Source: Bathymodiolus japonicus methanotrophic gill symbiont
GTDB lineage: Bacteria; Pseudomonadota; Gammaproteobacteria; Methylococcales; Methylomonadaceae
Direction: 5' to 3'
NCBI RefSeq assembly: GCF_019721995.1
Contig: NZ_BLYC01000011.1
Span: 1-64,000, forward strand
DNA length: 64,000 nucleotides
The notes below the pieces were generated by a model. That model was given only the letters and a program-made list of their open reading frames with translations, ran no database searches and was not told where the DNA came from. The position numbers were made by a program, and so were the translations under genes. The stretch's first letter is position 1. The number at the start of each line of letters is the position of its first letter. Below are positions 1,304 to 47,935 of this stretch, piece by piece.

Positions 1304-1583
1304 CAGGCGCGCCATGCTACCTCACGAAATTCCGGGACTCCTGTCGCCATAATTCGTTCACCTACGCAGCGGATGGGAGATGCCCTGAACGCCCTGCGTC
1401 CGCAACGACTACGCACAAAAGCCGCTTCGTCATTACTACCTCACTGGCTGGACGGCTATTCGGAATGCAATTCTTGCTCCTCTCGCGTGCTGCTAGCACA
1501 CGTCGAATCAGCGAATTGCCCTGTCGCCTATCAGGGACTAAAAATCACCACTTCGCTAAGCTCCGTTTCCATGATTTTCAGCG
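1304..1583 (-). mobile_element. SNE1 repeat, 280 bp
   Basis: One of five full 280-bp copies. Read on the minus strand it starts CGCTGAAAATC at 1583 and ends GGCGCGCCTG at 1304. It has no terminal inverted repeat. Deleting exactly these 280 bases joins the two halves of the phospholipase gene in frame, with no duplicated target. The base four positions before the 5' end is C (CAAA on the minus strand). Short open frames inside are by-products and are not annotated as genes. Confidence 0.9.
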
Positions 1584-15571: not shown

Positions 15572-16309
15572 GGAAAATATTTATTCCTTCATTACTTAAT
15601 AGTTGGGCTGTCACATACAGGGGCAAGCCCATAATACCTGAAAAACTGCCGCTAATGGATGCGACAAAAATACTGGCTAAACCCTGGATGGCGTATGCAC
15701 CTGCCTTATCAGTGGGCTCGCCTGTGTGCCAGTATTGTATAATTTCCTGCTCGGAAATGGCACGAAAAGTAACATCCGAGATGCTGACTATCTGCTGAAT
15801 TTGCTTGCCACCGCTGAAAATCATGGAAACGTAGCTTAGCGAAGTGGTGATTTTTAGTCCCTGATAGGCGACAGGGCAATTCGCTGATTCGACGTGTGCT
15901 AGCAGCACGCGAGAGGAGCAAGAATTGCATTCCGAATAGCCGTCCAGCCAGTGAGGTAGTAATGACGAAGCGGCTTTTGTGCGTAGTCGTTGCGGACGCA
16001 GGGCGTTCAGGGCATCTCCCATCCGCTGCGTAGGTGAACGAATTATGGCGACAGGAGTCCCGGAATTTCGTGAGGTAGCATGGCGCGCCTGGTACTGATA
16101 CCGCGCTGTATACCTGATGAGTGCTGGCCGATAGCAGACTTAACATCTCGATGGCATGGGGTAGGTTTTCCGGTTTGCCCATAATTGTATCATTCAGAAC
16201 CACTGAGGTATCTGCTGCCAGAATCACATTATTTTCTGCACATTGTTGCTGGATGGCAGATGACTTTTCATGTGCTACTCGCAGTACATAATCAGCGGGT
16301 GATTCATTA
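15564..16309 (-). pseudogene. maf: Maf-like nucleotide pyrophosphatase, doubly interrupted
   Basis: Maf/YhdE house-cleaning pyrophosphatase, normally ~195 residues. The remaining protein begins inside the family (NESPADYVLRVAHEK) because MITE-C starts at 16310, removing about the first 40 residues including the SxxR nucleotide-binding start. The active-site region is still readable (ILAADTSVVL), but SNE1 (15812-16091) splits the gene after THQVYSAVSV. Deleting SNE1 exactly rejoins the frame to GKQIQQIVSISDVTFR. The missing 5' end is not next to the other border of the island. Non-functional. Confidence 0.9.
15812..16091 (+). mobile_element. SNE1 repeat, 280 bp, inside maf
   Basis: Full 280-bp copy starting CGCTGAAAATC and ending GGCGCGCCTG. 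Its exact removal restores the maf frame; no target duplication. The upstream tetranucleotide is CCAC, with C at -4. Confidence 0.9.
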
Positions 16310-16813: not shown

Positions 16814-18343
16814 CTCGATGTTCAAGTTTTTGATATTGAGAAGGTAAAATCAGGTATTCTGAGGTTGTTGTAATTTTATCGGTGTAAGCCCATGTTAATG
16901 AATGCCCAGCCACCTTTATCCAAAGCTATATTGACGATTTAAATGATGCGCTCAATCAGCTAAAACCCGGAGCCGCTTTGACACGGATTCAAGCCGCTTG
17001 GTTGGGCACTTGTTTAACGGGCATACTGCTAATGAACTCTGTTTGCTGGGCTAAGTTTGAGCGAGCAAGCCTTGGAGATTGCAAAGTAGCCGCATTATCC
17101 TGGGTGTTTCGTAAAGCAAGTATACCCTGGGACTGGTTGCTACGGGTGAGTGTGGTCTTAATTTTAAAACGTTATGGCATTACTGAAGGTGTGTTGGCCT
17201 TTGATGAATCAGACCGAGCACGATCTAAGTCTACAAAACGTATTTATAAGGTTTACAAGCAGAAACACAAAGGCTCCGGCGGGTATGTTAATGGACAAAC
17301 GATAGTATTATTGCTGCTAGTTACCTCATCCATTACAGTGCCTGTCGGTTTTTTCTTTTATATGCCGGATCCAGCCTTAAAACAGTGGGATAAAGAAGAT
17401 AAACGGTTGAAAAAGAGCGGTATAGCAAAAAAATATCGGCCTATTAAGCCTGAACGTGACAGTGCCTACCCGACCAAAACAGAGATTGCATTAGGCTTAT
17501 TAAAAGAGTTTAAAGTTGCGCATAGCCTGATTAAAATTAAAGGCGTACTGGCTGATGCGCTGTATGGTGAAAAAGCCTTTATGGACGAAGCCGCTAAAGA
17601 ATCTGGAGGCTCGCAGGTGATTAGCCAATTACGTAAAAACCAAAATATTGAATATAGAGGTAGAATAAGGTCAGTCGAGAGCTACTTTAATTCGATTAAC
17701 AAAGGCATTGATCAGATAATACGTGTACGTGGCGGAAAAGAGATTAAAGTGACTGTCAGCAGTGCACGATTAAAGGTGAGTTCACACAGTAAAAAACGCT
17801 TTGTCATTGCCTTAAAATATGACGGTGAAAACGACTATCGCTATTTAGTGGCGACAGACCTGACTTGGCGCACACAAGATATTATTCAAGCCTATACGTT
17901 GAGATGGCTGATTGAGGTTTTCTTTGAGGACTGGAAGCTTTATGAAGGATGGGGGCGTGAGGCCAAACAATTAGATGAAGAGGGATCAAGCCGTGGCCTG
18001 ATTCTGAGTCTTTTGTTTGACCATTGCCTTCTCCTTCACCCAGAGCAAATAGCCCGCATTGAAAGCAAACTACCTGCGTATACCGTAGGAAGCTTACAGC
18101 GCAAGTCTCAAATGGATGTACTGCTTGAGTTCATCACGTCATTGCTAGAGTTTCCAGATCCTGGTGATAAGCTGAAAGAGTTAGGTGAATTAATAAAGGA
18201 TGTGTTTCAACTGATGCCATCAGGAAAACATATGATTGGCAGAGATTTAGGGCGCTTAGAGCCAACACCATCATTAAAGTATTGTTCTGCTGGGTGAAGG
18301 TAAGAGTTTGATGGCAATGGGATGGAAAAACTTGAACATCGAG
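16814..18343 (+). mobile_element. ISc copy A (IS4 family), 1530 bp
   Basis: Complete ISc element. Inverted ends CTCGATGTTCAAGTTTTT / AAAACTTGAACATCGAG are flanked by a 5-bp duplication TAAAA (16809-16813, 18344-18348). It is inserted into the IS630 transposase gene. A 5-bp duplication fits an ISH3-like branch of IS4. Confidence 0.9.
16892..18297 (+). pseudogene. IS4-family transposase (ISc copy A), 5' frameshift
   Basis: The transposase normally starts MLMNAPATFIQSYIDDLND at an ATG equivalent to 16892, as the copies at 24810 and 39406 show. Here a run of four C is reduced to three (near 16905), so that ATG is out of frame. The frame is open from a TTG at 16978 to 18297 (439 residues). Catalytic features: D in VLAFDESDRA, D in VLADALYGEK and the YREK signature in YTLRWLIEVFFEDWK. 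Use of the TTG is possible but would drop ~29 residues. Confidence 0.8.
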
Positions 18344-18886
18344 TAAAAGCTTAAAAAATGAGAAATATCCAACACAGAAGCTTTTTATGGAAGCGATATA
18401 TTCTATTGCCGACAACGTCTTAATCGAGAGTTATAAGCCAATGATATTACAACACGCTGAAACATCTGGGCGTTTTAATGGTGAAAGCTATGTTGAGTTT
18501 TTAACACAATTGCTGGCTTATTATAAAGGCAAGATTATTCTAATTGAAGATGGTGCCCCGTATCATGGAAGCGGTGTTATTAAGGAATTTAAGTTAGCTA
18601 ATGTAGATCGTTTGACAGTAGAACGTCTCCCTGCGTTCTCGCCGGATTTTAATCCGATTGAGAAATTATGGAAAAATACGAAACGCGATTCGACTCATAT
18701 GAAGTATTTTAAAACTTTTGAAGATCTTCATGATTCAGTTGTGCAAACTTTTAACACTTATATGCATGATGCCAGTAAAGTGATTTGTGTTATGCAAAAA
18801 TTGCGGGAAGATTTCGTTGTTACCGCCTAAGTTTAAGCGCTCCAAATTTGGAAATTATTTATCTGAGAAACTATAGTTACCTCATC

Positions 18887-19166
18887 CGCTGAAAATCATG
18901 GAAACGGAGCTTAGCTAAGTGGTGATTTTTAGTCCCTGATAGGCGACAGGGCAATTCGCTGATTCGACGTGTGCTAGCAGCACGCGAGAGGAGCAAGAAT
19001 TGGATTCCGAATAGCCGTCCAGCCAGTGAGGTAGTAATGACGAAGCGGCTTTTGTGCGTAGTCGTTGCGGACGCAGGGCGTTCAGGGCATCTCCCATCCG
19101 CTGCGTAGGTGAACGAATTATGGCGACAGGAGTCCCGGAATTTCGTGAGGTAGCATGGCGCGCCTG
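18887..19166 (+). mobile_element. SNE1 repeat with visible empty site
   Basis: 280 bp inserted between CCTCATC and CATTACAG. The uninterrupted string CTCATCCATTACAG is at 17327-17340 in ISc copy A, so the insertion added exactly the element and duplicated nothing. C at -4 (CATC). Confidence 0.95.
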
Positions 19167-19180
19167 CATTACAGTGCCTG

Positions 19181-19475
19181 CGCTGAAAATCAGGGAAACG
19201 GAGCCTAAGCGAAGTGATGATTTTTAGTCCGCGATAGCCGTAGGGCCGTTATTTTGTCGGAGTCTGAGCGTTAGCGAAGGTGGAGACAAAATAAAAGGCC
19301 ATCCGACACGGCGTCAAGTCATTTGGAGCCTATGTTCCGACCCCTTGTTGGGTCGGGACGAGGTGACGAGGACGAATCGGGGCCGCCGGAGGCATAAGTG
19401 GTCGCGTTAAGTTTTTGCTGCTTGCTTGGGCTGGGATGCCCAAAACAAGCTTTCGCAAAAATAGCGACTCCCCGA
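19181..19475 (+). mobile_element. SNE2 repeat with visible empty site
   Basis: 295 bp, starting CGCTGAAAATCAGGG and ending AGCGACTCCCCGA, inserted between GTGCCTG and TCGGTTTT. ISc copy A reads GTGCCTGTCGGTTTT without the element (17339-17353). No target duplication; C at -4 (CCTG). Confidence 0.95.
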
Positions 19476-21963: not shown

Positions 21964-22305
21964 CGCTGAAAATCCTGGAAACGGAGCTTTAGCGAAGTGA
22001 AGATTTTTAGTCCGCCGCTGAAAATCAGGGAAACGGAGCCTAAGCGAAGTGATGATTTTTAGTCCGCGATAGCCGTAGGGCCGTTGTTTTGTCGGAGTCT
22101 GAGCGTTAGCGAAGGTGGAGACAAAATAAAAGGCCATCCGACACGGCGTCAAGTCATTTGGAGCCTATGTTCCGACCCCTTGTCGGGACGAGGTGACGAG
22201 GACGAATCGGGGCCGCCGGAGGCATAAGTGGTCGCGTTAAGTTTTTGCTGCTTGCTTGGGCTGGGATGCCCAAAACAAGCTTTCGCAAAAATAGCGACTC
22301 CCCGC
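21964..22305 (+). mobile_element. SNE2 5' fragment followed by 290-bp SNE2
   Basis: 21964-22015 is the first ~51 bp of an SNE2 variant (CGCTGAAAATCCTGG), cut at TTTTTAGTCCG. A second SNE2 of 290 bp starts at 22016; it lacks 5 bp in the central CCGACCC/GGGTCGG hairpin. Both 5' ends have C at -4 (CATT, CCGC). The head-to-tail arrangement suggests insertion into, or replacement of, an older copy. Confidence 0.85.
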
Positions 22306-23900: not shown

Positions 23901-24888
23901 TTAATAAGCCTAATGCAATCTCTGTTTTGGTCGGGTAGGCACTGTCACGTTCAGGCTTAATAGGCCGATCTTTTTTTGCTATACCGCTCTTTTTCAACCG
24001 CTGAAAATCCTGGAAACGGAGCTTTAGCGAAGTGAAGATTTTTAGTCCGCGATAGCCGTAGGGCCGTTGTTTTGTCGGAGTCTGAGCGTTAGCGAAGGTG
24101 GAGACAAAATAAAAGGCCATCCGACACGGCGTCAAGTCATTTGGAGCCTATGTTCCGACCCCTTGTTGGGTCGGGACGAGGTGACGAGGACGAATCGGGG
24201 CCGCCGGAGGCATAAGTGGTCGCGTTAAGTTTTTGCTGCTTGCTTGGGCTGGGATGCCCAAAACAAGCTTTCGCAAAAATAGCGACTCCCCGACGTTTAT
24301 CTTCTTTATCCCACTGCTTTAAGGCTGGATCCGGCATATAAAAGAAAAAACCGACAGGCACTGTAATGGATGAGGTAACTAGCAGCAATAATACTATCGT
24401 TTGTCCATTAACATACCCGCCGGAGCCTTTGTGTTTCTGCTTGTAAACCTTATAAATACGTTTTGTAGACTTAGATCGTGCTCGGTCTGATTCATCAAAG
24501 GCCAACACACCTTCAGTGAAATGCCATAACGTTTTAGAATTAAGACCACACTCACCCGTAGCAACCAGTCCCAGGGTATACTTGCTTTACGAAACACCCA
24601 GGATAATGCGGCTACTTTGCAATCTCCAAGGCTTGCTCGCTCAAACTTGGCCCAGCAAACAGAGTTCATTAGCAGTATGCCCGTTAAACAAGTGCCCAAC
24701 CAAGCGGCTTGAATCCGTGTCAAAGCGGCTCCGGGTTTTAGCTGATTGAGCGCATCATTTAAATCGTCAATATAGCTTTGGATAAAGGTGGCTGGGGCAT
24801 TCATTAACATGGGCTTACACCGATAAAATTACAACAACCTCAGAATACCTGATTTTACCTTCTCAATATCAAAGACTTGAACATCGAG
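23901..24888 (-). mobile_element. ISc copy D, 5' part, interrupted by SNE2
   Basis: Minus-strand ISc with its outer end CTCGATGTTCAAG at 24888, the transposase start MLMNAPATFIQSY at 24810 and coding to the TTAAAAG point at ~23901. SNE2 (23999-24293) interrupts it, and a further frameshift lies near 24510 (GTGTGTTGG region). The 3' part is probably the 21337-21606 fragment. At 24889 it abuts ISa, so it inserted into that ISa copy. Confidence 0.85.
23999..24293 (+). mobile_element. SNE2 repeat, 295 bp, in ISc copy D
   Basis: Inserted between TTTTTCAAC and CGTTTATC. The intact ISc reads GATAAACGGTTGAAAAA on the other strand (17399-17415), so the join is exact and no base is duplicated. C at -4 (CAAC). 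Confidence 0.95.
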
Positions 24889-25732: not shown

Positions 25733-27213
25733 CATCAGTGTTCCCATTGAAAGAAGAAGCACCTAAACAAAGCAGCCTATAACCTACCTGAAGGTAGCAC
25801 CACTCGAATATTTCCATCGCTGAAAATCCTGGAAACGGAGCTTTAGCGAAGTGAAGATTTTTAGTCCGCGATAGCCGTAGGGCCGTTGTTTTGTCGGAGT
25901 CTGAGCGTTAGCGAAGGTGGAGACAAAATAAAAGGCCATCCGACACGGCGTCAAGTCATTTGGAGCCTATGTTCCGACCCCTTGTTGGGTCGGGACGAGG
26001 TGACGAGGACGAATCGGGGCCGCCGGAGGCATAAGTGGTCGCGTTAAGTTTTTGCTGCTTGCTTGGGCTGGGATGCCCAAAACAAGCTTTCGCAAAAATA
26101 GCGACTCCCCGAGTAGTCGATAGTGGTCGCCATTTCCTCCAAACCAATGAACAGATTTATGGCCAGCTGCTTCCCCACTCAACGTATTTTAAATCACTGA
26201 AGTCGCATAGACGAACAAGTATGCTTGAGGCATTTGAACAGCAGAGCTATCATCTTCACGCTGAAACACTGCTATCGCAAGGCATTGATTATCTTAAAGC
26301 ATTCCCGGAACTTGACGAATACACCATAGAAGCAGCGGATGGACATTTTATTGATCATGCCTGCCATACTGAAAAAAACAGCAAGGGGAAAGTTTATGCG
26401 TCCGGGGGGATTTACGCGTTGAATCTCAGAAGTGGGTTGCTCAGATTTCTTTGTCTGGTGACAAACGGAACTCAGAGACATCAAGAAATACCTGTGTTAC
26501 GAGATCATATTGAAAAGCAAAACAAGGGAAATAACAGCTCTCAGAAACATCTCTATGTCTACGATAAAGCCGTCACCGACTTTGTCTGGTGGGATCGGCA
26601 GAAGCGACATGCTAATTACATGATTTCAATGCTAAAAGAAAATTCAATTGCGACTCTGGTTGAGTCTATCCCTTTTGACTCCCGCCATGAGATCAATACA
26701 GGGGTTGAAGCATACAGTGTGTACGAAAACAAGGGCATCAAATTTAACGTGGTGGATTACCGTGATCCAGAAACCGGAAAACTTCACCGGTTTGTGACAA
26801 CCTTGCCAATGACTATTAACCCTGGAACCATTGCCATGCTGTATTTCAAGCGATGGACGATTGAAAAGACATTCAATAACACTAAAAGTAATTTCAAGGA
26901 AACTAAAGCTTGGTCTTCCAATACCCGCTCACTTGAAAATCAAATGCGCCTGACTGCAATGAGCTATAATTTAATGCGCGTGTTTGAATAGATTTCAAAA
27001 ACACAACAGCCAGAATTGATTCATCCATCGGATAAAAAATATAGCGAGGCTCTGGAGATTAGGCAGCAACAGGCCCAAAAACGAGATCGTTTTGTGAATC
27101 GATTATTTTTCCAGGCAAGAATATCTCGTATCAGCTCGTATACCATTCGAGCAGTTCAAAACGCAATAATAACAGGAATGTCTTTACAGTGCTTTATGAG
27201 CTCTCTTGTGGCG
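25733..27213 (+). mobile_element. ISb copy 2, deleted and interrupted
   Basis: Starts at the ISb end CATCAGTG (25733), runs 85 bp, meets SNE2 (25818-26112), then resumes in the transposase at VVDSGRHFLQ. Compared with ISb copy 1, the 309 bp equivalent to 5469-5777 are missing at the SNE2 site. The frame has a nonsense codon at about 26989 (GAG to TAG in VFEEIS) and the 3' end is lost at 27213. Inactive. Confidence 0.88.
25818..26112 (+). mobile_element. SNE2 repeat, 295 bp, at an ISb deletion
   Basis: Full length, with C at -4 (CCAT). Unlike the other copies its flanks are not contiguous in the parent: 309 bp of ISb are absent. Either insertion deleted DNA or two events overlapped. Confidence 0.9.
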
Positions 27214-28040
27214 AAGTATAATATGGCTAATGCGGTATATCGCTCAAAACCATCAATTCCATGGTCGCGACATTGACTCAACCCATGACCCTGCAATGCA
27301 TTTATGGCCGATTCTACTGCCGCTGTCAGCCCCGGACGGGCTGATAGTCTCCAGAAGGCGCAGGGAAATTTGCCAATCCGAAGTGCGCGATAGCGCGCGA
27401 GGGAGGCTAAAATTTTATCCCGAATAGCCGTAGAGCCATTTGTGGTAGCCATGACTGAGCTGCTTTGTGCTCAGTCTGTGGCGGACGCAGGGCGGCTGGA
27501 GCATCTCCTATTCGCTGCGTAGGTGAACGAATTACGGCGACAGGAGTCCCGGAATTTCGTGAGGTAGCATGGCGCGCCTGTTCAAGGGCTATTTTGTCAT
27601 CGGTTTCTTTTTGTATGACCTTATGGTGCAGTATGAATCCATGGTAGTCTTCCATGATGCAGACGCGTATGCCTGGTTCAACGGGTACCCTGCTTTGCCT
27701 TTACTGATCCATTCGGTAGGCGGTTGAAATAATGAAAATACTTTTTCATCGTGCGGGATAGTTTCTCCCTCAATGATACGTCGTCTTATCTGATCGACTT
27801 GTCGACCGCCATGCTGAAGAAACGTTTGCCAATCAATAATTCATAACTTTGAGTGACTCGATTCAGGTATTTTTGAGCCAGGTCAATATAAGTCTGGTGT
27901 GCTTTGCAAATCAAAGTTGTATAGATGTGTTGTAAACCCAGCAGGATAAGTGGGATATCATCGCGCGATGTGACATCAATGACGATATTGGTAATATCGA
28001 TTTGCCCGATTTCCAGTTGTGACGATATGATGTTTCTCAT
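27214..28040 (-). pseudogene. ISNCY-type transposase remnant, split by SNE3
   Basis: Minus-strand fragments of a DDE transposase. 28040-27581 carries, across two frames, a region ending HDEKVFSLFQPPTEWISKGKAG and KETDDKIALE. After SNE3, 27320-~27215 gives AVESAINALQGHGLSQCRDHGIDGFERYTALA, which matches the C-terminal end of ISNCY/IS1202-like transposases. Exact removal of SNE3 leaves the frame open (IALE-AVESAIN). Frameshifts and a missing N-terminus mark it as dead. Family named from memory of motifs. Confidence 0.65.
27321..27580 (+). mobile_element. SNE3 repeat, 260 bp
   Basis: Starts CGCTG followed by a hairpin (CTGTCAGCCC-CGGAC-GGGCTGATAG). It shares its last ~100 bp with SNE1 (GCGTAGGTGAACGAATTA... 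to GGCGCGCCTG), but its middle is different. C at -4 (CTGC). Only copy in the window. Confidence 0.8.
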
Positions 28041-36633: not shown

Positions 36634-37069
36634 CGCTGAAAATCATGGAAACGGAGCTTAGCGAAGTGGTGATTTTTAGTCCCTGATAGGCGACAGGGCA
36701 ATTCGCTGATTCGACGTGTGCTAGCAGCACGCGAGAGGAGCAAGAATTGCATTCCGAATAGCCGTCCAGCCAGTTTGGGGAGTCGCTATTTTTGCGAAAG
36801 CTTGTTTTGGGCATCCCAGCCCAAGCAAGCAGCAAAAACTTAACGCGACCACTTATGCCTCCGGCGGCCCCGATTCGTCCTCGTCACCTCGTCCCGACCC
36901 AACAAGGGGTCGGAACATAGGCTCCAAATGACTTGACGCCGTGTCGGATGGCCTTTTATTTTGTCTCCACCTTCGCTAACGCTCAGACTCCGACAAAATA
37001 ACGGCCCTACGGCTATCGCGGACTAAAAATCATCACTTCGCTTAGGCTCCGTTTCCCTGATTTTCAGCG
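36634..37069. mobile_element. SNE1 5' half fused to full reversed SNE2
   Basis: 36634-36774 is the first 141 bp of SNE1 (plus strand), ending CCGTCCAGCCAG. It is followed directly by a complete 295-bp SNE2 on the minus strand (36775-37069). Both 5' ends have C at -4 (CAGC; CCAC on the minus strand). The 3' half of SNE1 is absent. Confidence 0.88.
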
Positions 37070-42441: not shown

Positions 42442-42721
42442 CGCTGAAAATCATGGAAACGGAGCTTAGCGAAGTGGTGATTTTTAGTCCCTGATAGGCG
42501 ACAGGGCAATTCGTTGATTCGACGTGTGCTAGCAGCACGCGAGAGGAGCAAGAATTGCATTCCGAATAGCCGTCCAGCCAGTGAGGTAGTAATGACGAAG
42601 CGGCTTTTGTGCGTAGTCGTTGCGGACGCAGGGCGTTCAGGGCATCTCCCATCCGCTGCGTAGGTGAACGAATTATGGCGACAGGAGTCCCGGACTTTCG
42701 TGAGGTAGCATGGCGCGCCTG
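42442..42721 (+). mobile_element. SNE1 repeat, 280 bp, upstream of argC
   Basis: Full copy; C at -4 (CATT). It ends 214 bp before argC. The 42722-42935 gap holds a trace of MITE-F (GTAGGTTATTTATTG, 42846-42860) and possible argC promoter DNA; I see no gene in it. Confidence 0.9.
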
Positions 42722-46981: not shown

Positions 46982-47261
46982 CAGGCGCGCCATGCTACCT
47001 CACGAAATTCCGGGACTCCTGTCGCCATAATTCGTTCACCTACGCAGCGGATGGGAGATGCCCTGAACGCCCTGCGTCCGCAACGACTACGCACAAAAGC
47101 CGCTTCGTCATTACTACCTCACTGGCTGGACGGCTATTCGGAATGCAATTCTTGCTCCTCTCGCGTGCTGCTAGCACACGTCGAATCAGCGAATTGCACT
47201 GTCGCCTATCAGGGGCTAAAAATCACCACTTCGCTAAGCTCCGTTTCCATGATTTTCAGCG
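46982..47261 (-). mobile_element. SNE1 repeat, 280 bp, at ISd border
   Basis: Inserted precisely between the last base of ISd and the ATAG duplication, adding no duplicated base. C at -4 on the minus strand (CTAT). Confidence 0.93.
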
Positions 47262-47265
47262 ATAG

Positions 47266-47935
47266 TTACATCCGGCTAGCTTCTATAAGCGATCAGGCGT
47301 AATGGCAAACCGAACATGGTTGCAAAAAGATCAAGCAAAACATTGGCGGCGAGAAAAGCTAGTGTTGAAATGCATAGGCAGTGACCAATCACTTGAACTT
47401 ATGTATGATGGCAATAACGTTGACGTAGATTTACGCAGATCGCTGTAAAGCCAATCCGTAGCGTTGACAAATAATGGGTGAAGCAGTTTTGCCTTTTTGG
47501 GTATCTGGCAGATCATTGTCGAAGCTACTTTGACCCCCGCTGAAAATCAGGGAAACGTAGCCTAAGCGAAGTGAAGATTTTTAGTCCGCGATAGCCGTAG
47601 GGCCGTTGTTTTTTCGGAGTCTGAGCGTTAGCGAAGGTGGAGACAAAATAAAAGGCCATCCGACACGGCGTCAAGTCATTTGGAGCCTATGTTCCGACCC
47701 CTTGTTGGGTCGGGACGAGGTGACGAGGACGAATCGGGGCCGCCGGAGGCATAAGTGGTCGCGTTAAGTTTTTGCTGCTTGCTTGGGCTGGGATGCCCAA
47801 AACAAGCTTTCGCAAAAATAGCGACTCCCCGATGATTTTGATAAGCTTTGCCTCAAATGCAGCAGCTCCCCCTGTAAATTCAGTGGTAACCGTTTTGCTA
47901 CGCATGGTGGCTTGATGAATTTCTAAGAAACTTCA
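47266..47935 (+). mobile_element. degenerate ISa copy with SNE2
   Basis: Diverged ISa 3' part with many substitutions, ending TAAGAAACTTCAG at 47935. SNE2 (47538-47832) interrupts it between GACCCC and TGATTTTG, matching GATCC-GGATTTTG in intact ISa. Oldest ISa trace in the window. Confidence 0.82.
47538..47832 (+). mobile_element. SNE2 repeat, 295 bp, in old ISa
   Basis: Full length with C at -4 (CCCC). The SNE2 sequence is nearly identical to the others while its ISa host is heavily mutated, so the insertion is younger than the host. Confidence 0.92.

What the first reader, a model, noticed from the sequence alone, without database searches (positions are those of the whole stretch)
18887..19166. 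SNE1: 280-bp mobile repeat that inserts without duplicating its target
Five full copies (1304, 15812, 18887, 42442, 46982) are each exactly 280 bp. For 18887 the empty site is in this window (ISc copy A, 17327-17340). For 1304 and 15812 exact removal restores a protein frame. At 46982 the element sits precisely between ISd and its ATAG duplication. There are no terminal inverted repeats and no coding frame in common with a transposase. This differs from DDE-type MITEs.
Basis: seen in the sequence. Interest (0 to 1): 0.88.

Follow-up and report, generated by a model that had tools for sequence, protein, structure and literature searches.

The report
Folded jumping DNA, 280 bp, noncoding
A 280-base noncoding DNA repeat that inserts itself exactly, without duplicating its target, belongs to a large, apparently uncatalogued family of mobile elements in methane-eating and other gamma-proteobacteria; each element is one long folded single strand and probably jumps as single-stranded DNA at replication forks.

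Summary
Five exact 280-bp copies lie in the window, at least 40 in the genome; 48 insertions have distinct flanks. Of 19 junctions with a comparable empty site, 13 are base-exact over 100 nt. One (L039) carries an extra CTCAAT.

New here:
- Target rule: C four bases before the left end in 47 of 48, 153 of 156 over all subfamilies then held, 133 of 139 in a distant genome. The right ends I could fix usually carry C at -4 too.
- The whole element is one conserved fold: 43 pairs, 29 with double changes, covariation score 0.480 against 0.204 shuffled.
- A covariance model finds it in 75 of 101 genomes of the family and 34 of 274 of the class. No Rfam match on an element.
- In G170, with about 450 copies (extrapolated), orientation follows replication, 91 to 13.

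Best explanation: non-autonomous single-strand transposition into the lagging-strand template, as for IS200/IS605, by an unidentified enzyme. An RNA intermediate is the main rival. Outside G170 and G100 the strand bias is weak, and one of two loop tests does not separate DNA from RNA.

The parts
18887..19166 (+). SNE1, full 280-bp element (the finding)
1304..1583 (-). SNE1, full
15812..16091 (+). SNE1, full, inside a maf-like gene
42442..42721 (+). SNE1, full
46982..47261 (-). SNE1, full
36634..36774 (+). SNE1, left 141 bp only, joined to an inverted SNE2 piece
18883..18886 (+). CNNN target flank of the 18887 copy (CATC): C at -4
18888..18933 (+). left hairpin of SNE1 (GCTG...TAGT foot with conserved G.T pairs)
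   Evidence: fold; covariation
19163..19166 (+). right terminal tetranucleotide CCTG (C at -4 from the right end)
19181..19475 (+). SNE2, sister family, same left end, other right module; exact in ISc
22016..22305 (+). SNE2, inserted after the left part of another SNE2 (21964-22015); right end uncertain by a base or two
23999..24293 (+). SNE2
   Evidence: end by alignment to 19475
25818..26112 (+). SNE2
   Evidence: end by alignment to 19475
47538..47832 (+). SNE2
   Evidence: end by alignment to 19475
27321..27580 (+). SNE3, left hairpin with fully compensated stem (CTGTCAGCCC/GGGCTGATAG), right end as SNE1

Best explanation
SNE elements are non-autonomous mobile DNA moved in trans as single-stranded DNA. 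When the + strand is exposed as lagging-strand template, it folds (left hairpin, central multi-arm domain, right hairpin). A strand-transferring enzyme nicks three bases after a C on the target side (CNNN|) and again after the terminal CNNN of the element. The excised single strand is joined into another exposed CNNN| site without duplicating anything, and replication makes it double-stranded. Shown: exact insertion, C at -4 on the left and on most right ends that could be fixed, a one-strand fold with covariation, small size without room for a transposase, and replication-linked orientation in G170 and G100. Inferred: single-stranded intermediate, HUH-type chemistry, action in trans. Unknown: the enzyme.
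For: Exact empty sites: 13 of 19 comparable junctions over 100 nt, 3 more gap-free in a shorter hit. C at -4: 47/48, 153/156, 133/139 (131/135 after dropping four chance pattern matches), and 36/39 of model hits whose left end starts CGCT or TGCT. Right ends: CCTG or CCTA (SNE1 type), CTTG (SNE4, 4 of 5 full copies read), CCGA (SNE2, set by the ISc empty site). Whole-element covariation. Left stems replaced with pairing kept (AAAATC, TCAGCCC, CCAGCC, and TTAATCC in one copy). Motifs of loops that suit DNA (recalled) on the + strand: C-GAA-G 110 against 2 on the - strand (Markov 36); GC(GNYA)GC 20 against 8 (5.0); GC(GNRA)GC 16 against 10 (9.4); GC(UUCG)GC none. Orientation in G170 91:13, Fisher p 3e-15, switching where GC skew changes sign; G100 9:0. 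IS608 and ISDra2 insert into the lagging-strand template; cleavage is set at a target tetranucleotide flanking LE and at the final tetranucleotide of RE (PMC6006769, passages).
Against: No transposase is linked to the elements: none of the four Y1 loci of G027 (M. buryatense) holds an SNE (one 23-nt match, E 0.002). A motif scan of 1.04 Mb (30%) of G170 shows no Y1 gene. A trans-mobilised ssDNA element should need only its ends, yet the centre is conserved as structure too. Strand bias is weak in G027 (18:10) and G008 (10:5), and falls to 12:9 and 7:5 without elements within 100 kb of ori/ter. A stricter loop test with 4-bp stems shows GNA 7 (Markov 2.0), GNYA 4 (0.7) and GNRA 5 (1.4) on the + strand, so it does not separate DNA from RNA; neither test removes shared descent. 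At the left only one base lies outside the hairpin, so there is no IS608-like guide tetranucleotide. L039 has an extra 6 bp; one SNE4 copy ends TTTG; of 12 model hits with another left start only 2 obey the C rule.
Confidence: 0.58

Rival explanations
1. RNA intermediate: the element is a structured RNA that is reverse-spliced or reverse-transcribed into exposed DNA by a group II-like or other reverse transcriptase acting in trans.
For: The full length is conserved as a fold with G.U pairs on one strand. Insertion is exact, as in retrohoming. The stricter loop test enriches GNRA as well. Endonuclease-free group II introns also use replication forks (recalled). A group II intron sits inside SNE4 in M. 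buryatense.
Against: Starts CGCUG, not GUGYG; no Rfam intron match on an element. No reverse transcriptase belongs to an element in what I read: the two RT hits are one gene lying between two SNEs, not inside one. Loop motifs favour DNA in one of two tests. Copies lie in both orientations to genes (15812 antisense in maf; L010 sense in ISc).
Confidence: 0.18
2. Single-strand site-specific recombination by a tyrosine recombinase, in the manner of integron attC insertion at secondary sites.
For: Exact insertion of a unit with a folded strand and no inverted ends; class C group II introns are known to use attC hairpins (recalled).
Against: The left junction shows C at -4, not the GTT core of attC (recalled; no attC search was run). 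No integrase family is among the 25 commonest of 103 families in 102 ORFs at distant loci (the other 78 were not shown).
Confidence: 0.08
3. RNA-guided recombination: the element carries its own guide RNA (IS110 bridge RNA-like or omega RNA-like) for a nuclease or recombinase in trans.
For: Full-length structured element, exact insertion.
Against: Only one target base is fixed, so no target is programmed. No HEARO match in the own genome (its controls did not ring) and RRXRR (IscB) in 1 of 16 genomes searched. IS110 and TnpB were not searched.
Confidence: 0.06
4. An ordinary DDE-type MITE whose duplications have been missed.
For: Small, high copy number; one junction (L039) has an extra 6 bp.
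Against: No inverted ends; no right-flank position above 0.21 bit; exact empty sites in 13 of 19.
Confidence: 0.02

Closest known systems
IS200/IS605 family and its non-autonomous derivatives (PATEs)
   Same: No target duplication, no inverted ends, hairpins on one strand at both ends, a site left of the element and a similar one as its last four bases, replication-linked orientation (family features from PMC6006769, passages).
   Different: One-base specificity (C at -4); no guide tetranucleotide at the left hairpin foot; the whole 260-310 bp is a conserved fold; too short for tnpA or tnpB and none linked in what I read.
REP/BIME/REPIN with RAYT (TnpAREP)
   Same: High-copy palindromic elements with a supposed Y1 enzyme in trans; C-containing cleavage site (C|T in E. 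coli, PMC8266576, passages).
   Different: REPs are 21-65 nt with a tetranucleotide foot (GTAG or GTGG in most subclasses) and lie near their RAYT gene (PMC6006769, passages); SNEs are about 280 bp, lack that foot and do not flank a Y1 gene in G027.
CGTC-tagged REPs
   Same: Palindromic repeats without a dedicated transposase (PMC3733652, passages).
   Different: Small repeats with a CGTC tag; the passages I saw give no 280-bp fold or target rule.
HEARO / IscB omega RNA elements
   Same: Mobile structured non-coding elements that insert exactly (recalled).
   Different: No HEARO model match in the own genome, and IscB (RRXRR) in only 1 of 16 genomes.

Membership tests
IS200/IS605 (non-autonomous derivative) | insertion without target duplication | tested here: met
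   13 of 19 comparable junctions exact over 100 nt, 3 more gap-free in a shorter hit; L039 is the exception
IS200/IS605 (non-autonomous derivative) | subterminal hairpins on one strand at both ends | tested here: met
   left helix 99.5% and right helix 90% of cells paired, both with double changes
IS200/IS605 (non-autonomous derivative) | conserved tetranucleotide flanking LE, and equivalent last four bases of RE | tested here: inconclusive
   only the first base (C) is fixed (left; right ends)
IS200/IS605 (non-autonomous derivative) | guide tetranucleotide 5' to each hairpin foot | tested here: not met
   left: the first base pair of the fold is base 2 of the element; right foot not settled
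IS200/IS605 (non-autonomous derivative) | orientation bias to the lagging-strand template | tested here: met
   G170 91:13 and G100 9:0; weak in G027 18:10 and G008 10:5
IS200/IS605 (non-autonomous derivative) | a Y1 TnpA element with the same ends in the genome | tested here: inconclusive
   Y1 genes in all 6 genomes searched; in the loci read no Y1 gene is bounded by SNE ends, though SNEs lie near some in G000 and G008; genomes not read whole
REP / RAYT | GTAG (or GTGG) at the hairpin foot | tested here: not met
   left foot is CGCTG; right foot CGCTG or GTCGC in the types I looked at
REP / RAYT | copies flank the RAYT gene | tested here: not met
   no SNE in any of the 4 Y1 loci of G027
IS91 / ISCR (Y2) | Y2 transposase in the genome | tested here: not met
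   no match in G000, G008, G027 and G035, that is 4 of 8 genomes
DDE-type MITE | terminal inverted repeats and target duplication | tested here: not met
group II intron | 5' GUGYG, domain V, curated family match | tested here: not met
   starts CGCUG; no Rfam intron match on an element; domain V not sought by itself
HEARO / IscB | HEARO covariance match; IscB in genome | tested here: inconclusive
   no match in G000, controls silent; RRXRR in 1 of 16 genomes
IS110 bridge-RNA element | DEDD recombinase with the same ends | not tested
   no genome search was left for it

The most novel reading that the evidence does not exclude
SNEs are a class of mobile element of their own, spread over the Gammaproteobacteria, in which the element is nothing but one long conserved nucleic-acid fold. 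The fold itself, centre included, is what the moving enzyme handles. That enzyme may be one of the Y1 proteins of subclasses 2.1/2.3, for which no REP-like hairpin was found in print (PMC6006769, passages): three of the four Y1 proteins of M. buryatense look like subclass 2.1 by motif.
Probability: 0.3. Interest if true: 0.9.

Novelty: new variant of a known kind. Interest (0 to 1): 0.75.

Why it matters
A 260-310 bp element family with roughly 450 copies in one genome (extrapolated) and members in 75 of 101 sampled genomes of the methanotroph family has no Rfam match and turned up in none of my paper searches. It is a naturally replicated experiment on single-strand transposition: exact insertion, a one-base target rule and replication-linked orientation, with no known enzyme. 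Methylotuvimicrobium buryatense carries more than 20 near-identical copies, so the mover can be hunted directly. It may also supply the missing substrate of orphan Y1 enzymes.

Tried and rejected
IscB/HEARO and IS91: not supported. Y1 neighbours in G027: by eye they carry GGGGTCAG-type flanks or their own REPs, not SNE ends. Curated RNA families: no match on an element at gathering score over the window and 20 distant loci (one tRNA beside an element in L258); two chance-level hits at relaxed score. Minimum free energy against shuffles is uninformative for a single copy (z 0.07, 0.05, 1.00); only covariation shows the fold. Recurrent neighbours at distant loci: 102 of the 238 non-overlapping frames found were scanned, and no transposase is among the 25 commonest of 103 families. 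The RT in G034 lies between two SNEs, not inside one. Long SNEs in G170: of ten left ends without a right end at the usual distance, I examined six. Four are chance pattern matches, one is a full element with a divergent right end, one is interrupted; the other four are cut by the stretch edge. A chimeric 278-bp copy with an IS-like interior (L082:3643-3920) was dropped from the alignment, as one copy cannot show mobility. Phage records: no match.

Prior art: searches listed no paper that I recognised as describing these elements. I saw listings with abstract beginnings only, plus passages of PMC8266576 and PMC3733652, and passages with section 17 (Table 1) of PMC6006769.

The copy estimate for G170 goes from about 460 to about 450.

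Full report
WHAT IS THERE. The own genome (G000, 4.97 Mb) lists 40 such copies, and the tool scored only 40 candidates. I fetched 34 stretches around them. With the window they hold 50 full copies with enough flank, 48 of them distinct by flanks. The genome is probably a Methyloprofundus: genus-mate G008 has an SNE at the same coordinates of its second contig as plasmid record AP023241.1, Methyloprofundus sp..

INSERTION. I joined 50+50 flanking bases of the 48 insertions and searched the stretches held. Nineteen gave a hit that spans the junction. Thirteen are gap-free over all 100 bases. Three are gap-free in a shorter hit: L036 over 94 bases, L038 over 79 (a longer hit of L038 has 2 gaps), L032_572 over 68 at 82%. 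L039 has an extra CTCAAT beside the element. Two are uninformative: L017, where similarity is low, and 18887, where SNE2 is nested. L010 and L032_2727 share one ISc position and may be one event. Several empty sites are sister copies of insertion sequences or other SNEs. The 18887 site is exact by inspection: ISc reads ACCTCATC-CATTACAGTGCCTG-TCGG, with SNE1 at the first dash and SNE2 at the second. Removing the 15812 copy joins a maf-like frame.

TARGET RULE. Left flanks carry C at -4 in 47 of 48 SNE1 insertions; C at -5 is rare (1 of 48) and G at -1 absent. No right-flank position exceeds 0.21 bit. Over all subfamilies then held the rule holds in 153 of 156 non-redundant flanks. In the distant genome G170 it holds for 133 of 139 pattern matches, where G at -1 does occur, 22 of 139; without four chance matches found later it is 131 of 135. 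Of 52 model hits in relatives, 51 have flank: 36 of 39 that start CGCT/TGCT obey, but only 2 of 12 that start otherwise, whose left edge is not settled. The right ends I could fix mostly have C fourth from the end: CCTG or CCTA (SNE1 type; CCTA in L009 and L076), CTTG in 4 of 5 full SNE4 copies read and TTTG in the fifth, CCGA for SNE2 from the ISc empty site.

ANATOMY. The window holds two sister families. SNE2 (19181, 22016, 23999, 25818, 47538) shares the left end and has a different right module. SNE3 (27321-27580) shares the right end and has a left stem replaced entirely with pairing kept. A scan of 842 kb held at the time found left stems AAAATC, TCAGCCC and CCAGCC, and TTAATCC in one copy, all as CGCTG-stem-loop-stem-TAGTC. 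An alignment of 22 diverse elements gives 43 pairs in 11 helices that span the element: left hairpin, a closed central domain with two arms, right hairpin. Of the cells, 93.7% are paired (shuffled 77.9, slid at most 44.8); 29 pairs have double changes; the covariation score is 0.480 (shuffled 0.204, slid at most 0.113). One measure, further pair types, was not above shuffles (122 of 500). Single sequences fold no better than shuffles.

DNA OR RNA FOLD. In 52 non-redundant elements the + strand has C-GAA-G 110 times (Markov expectation 36, - strand 2), GC(GNA)GC 43 (14.6; 2) and GC(GNYA)GC 20 (5.0; 8). The loop that RNA favours, GC(GNRA)GC, is 16 (9.4; 10), and GC(UUCG)GC is absent (0.46 expected). 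A stricter count that asks for four paired bases gives GNA 7 (2.0; - strand 0), GNYA 4 (0.7; 0) and GNRA 5 (1.4; 1), which does not separate DNA from RNA. That GNA and GNNA loops suit DNA is recalled; papers naming GCGAAGC as an extraordinarily stable DNA hairpin were seen only as a search listing. Shared descent is not removed. This is weak support, not proof.

DISTRIBUTION. By DNA similarity 22 of 61 genomes match, the own included. The covariance model R1 finds members in 75 of 101 genomes and 28 of 29 genera of the family, and in 34 of 274 genomes and 30 of 222 genera drawn from the class, the own genome, G027 and G039 of the same order included. The members I saw are about 155-310 bp. Rfam 15 has no family that matches an element.

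REPLICATION. G170, a complete 3.45-Mb chromosome, had 150 matches, the number scored; 104 of its rows were listed. Orientation is + for 43 of 49 between 0.553 and 2.26 Mb and - for 48 of 55 elsewhere, so 91 agree and 13 do not (Fisher p 3e-15). I set these borders from the orientations, but GC skew, from 20 sampled stretches, changes sign between 0.516 and 0.688 and between 2.236 and 2.408 Mb. In 1.04 Mb of G170, 139 left-end matches occur (113 agree, 26 do not; this set overlaps the first and holds the four chance matches); 135 real ones extrapolate to about 450 copies. Three further genomes: G100 9:0 (9 of its 13 matches were listed), G027 18:10 (28 of 36 matches; shorter fragments dropped), G008 10:5 (its second contig left out); together 37:15, p 0.003. 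Without elements within 100 kb of the borders they are 8:0, 12:9 and 7:5. The strand that folds lies on the lagging-strand template, where IS608 and ISDra2 insert (PMC6006769, passages).

SEARCH FOR THE ENZYME. Y1 genes exist in all six genomes searched. In G027 all four lack SNEs in their 3.3-kb loci. By motif three of them (NHVH/YIELNP, NHYH/YVVLNP, NHVH/YIEMNP) resemble subclass 2.1, for which no REP-like hairpin was found in print, though inverted repeats of GGGGWSAS type flank many of them (PMC6006769); the fourth I did not classify. No clear long SNE and no Y1-like frame were seen in the 1.04 Mb of G170. IscB was found in 1 of 16 genomes; Y2 had no match in G000, G008, G027 and G035. The enzyme is unknown.

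READING. Exact insertion, one-strand hairpin ends, C at -4 and replication-linked orientation together match the logic of IS200/IS605 better than any other known kind I considered. The missing guide tetranucleotide, the one-base specificity and the conserved centre keep me from filing it there. The conserved centre is the best argument for an RNA intermediate, which an intron-marked element would settle.

Noticed in passing
L167, L174, L175, L166 (M. buryatense 5G, G027 C1 near 0.72-0.74, 2.53 and 3.17 Mb): A 1.9-kb group II intron with a reverse transcriptase sits after nucleotide 16 of SNE4, in the left hairpin (read whole in L167, by its 3' end in L174 and L175, by its 5' end in L166); at least three loci with different flanks carry it. 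It may home into SNEs or move with them.
   Followed up: partly
window 36634-37069: The left half of SNE1 is joined directly to an inverted SNE2 piece, a chimera of two elements.
   Followed up: no
L164 and L165 (G027) against other SNE4 copies: The same left and centre occur with two different right modules, which suggests module exchange between subfamilies.
   Followed up: no
L039, element at 1001: An extra CTCAAT follows the element, while the near-identical L038 insertion lacks it: the one junction with a duplication-like extra among the 19 compared.
   Followed up: no
L104 (record NZ_FQTP01000104.1): An SNE lies in a contig assigned to a thiotrophic gill symbiont; transfer between co-symbionts or mis-binning.
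   Followed up: no
L360-L366 (IMG/VR contigs): Seven stretches of four contigs called viral hold SNE left ends; one contig (2781126804, 55,775 b) has the same length as symbiont contig NZ_BDMN01000021.1, so the viral label may be wrong.
   Followed up: no
window 1-48000: The window is dense in broken insertion sequences, several interrupted by SNEs; they served as empty sites.
   Followed up: partly
L082:3643-3920: A 278-bp copy keeps about 56 bp of the left and about 51 bp of the right end of SNE1 around an IS-like interior.
   Followed up: no
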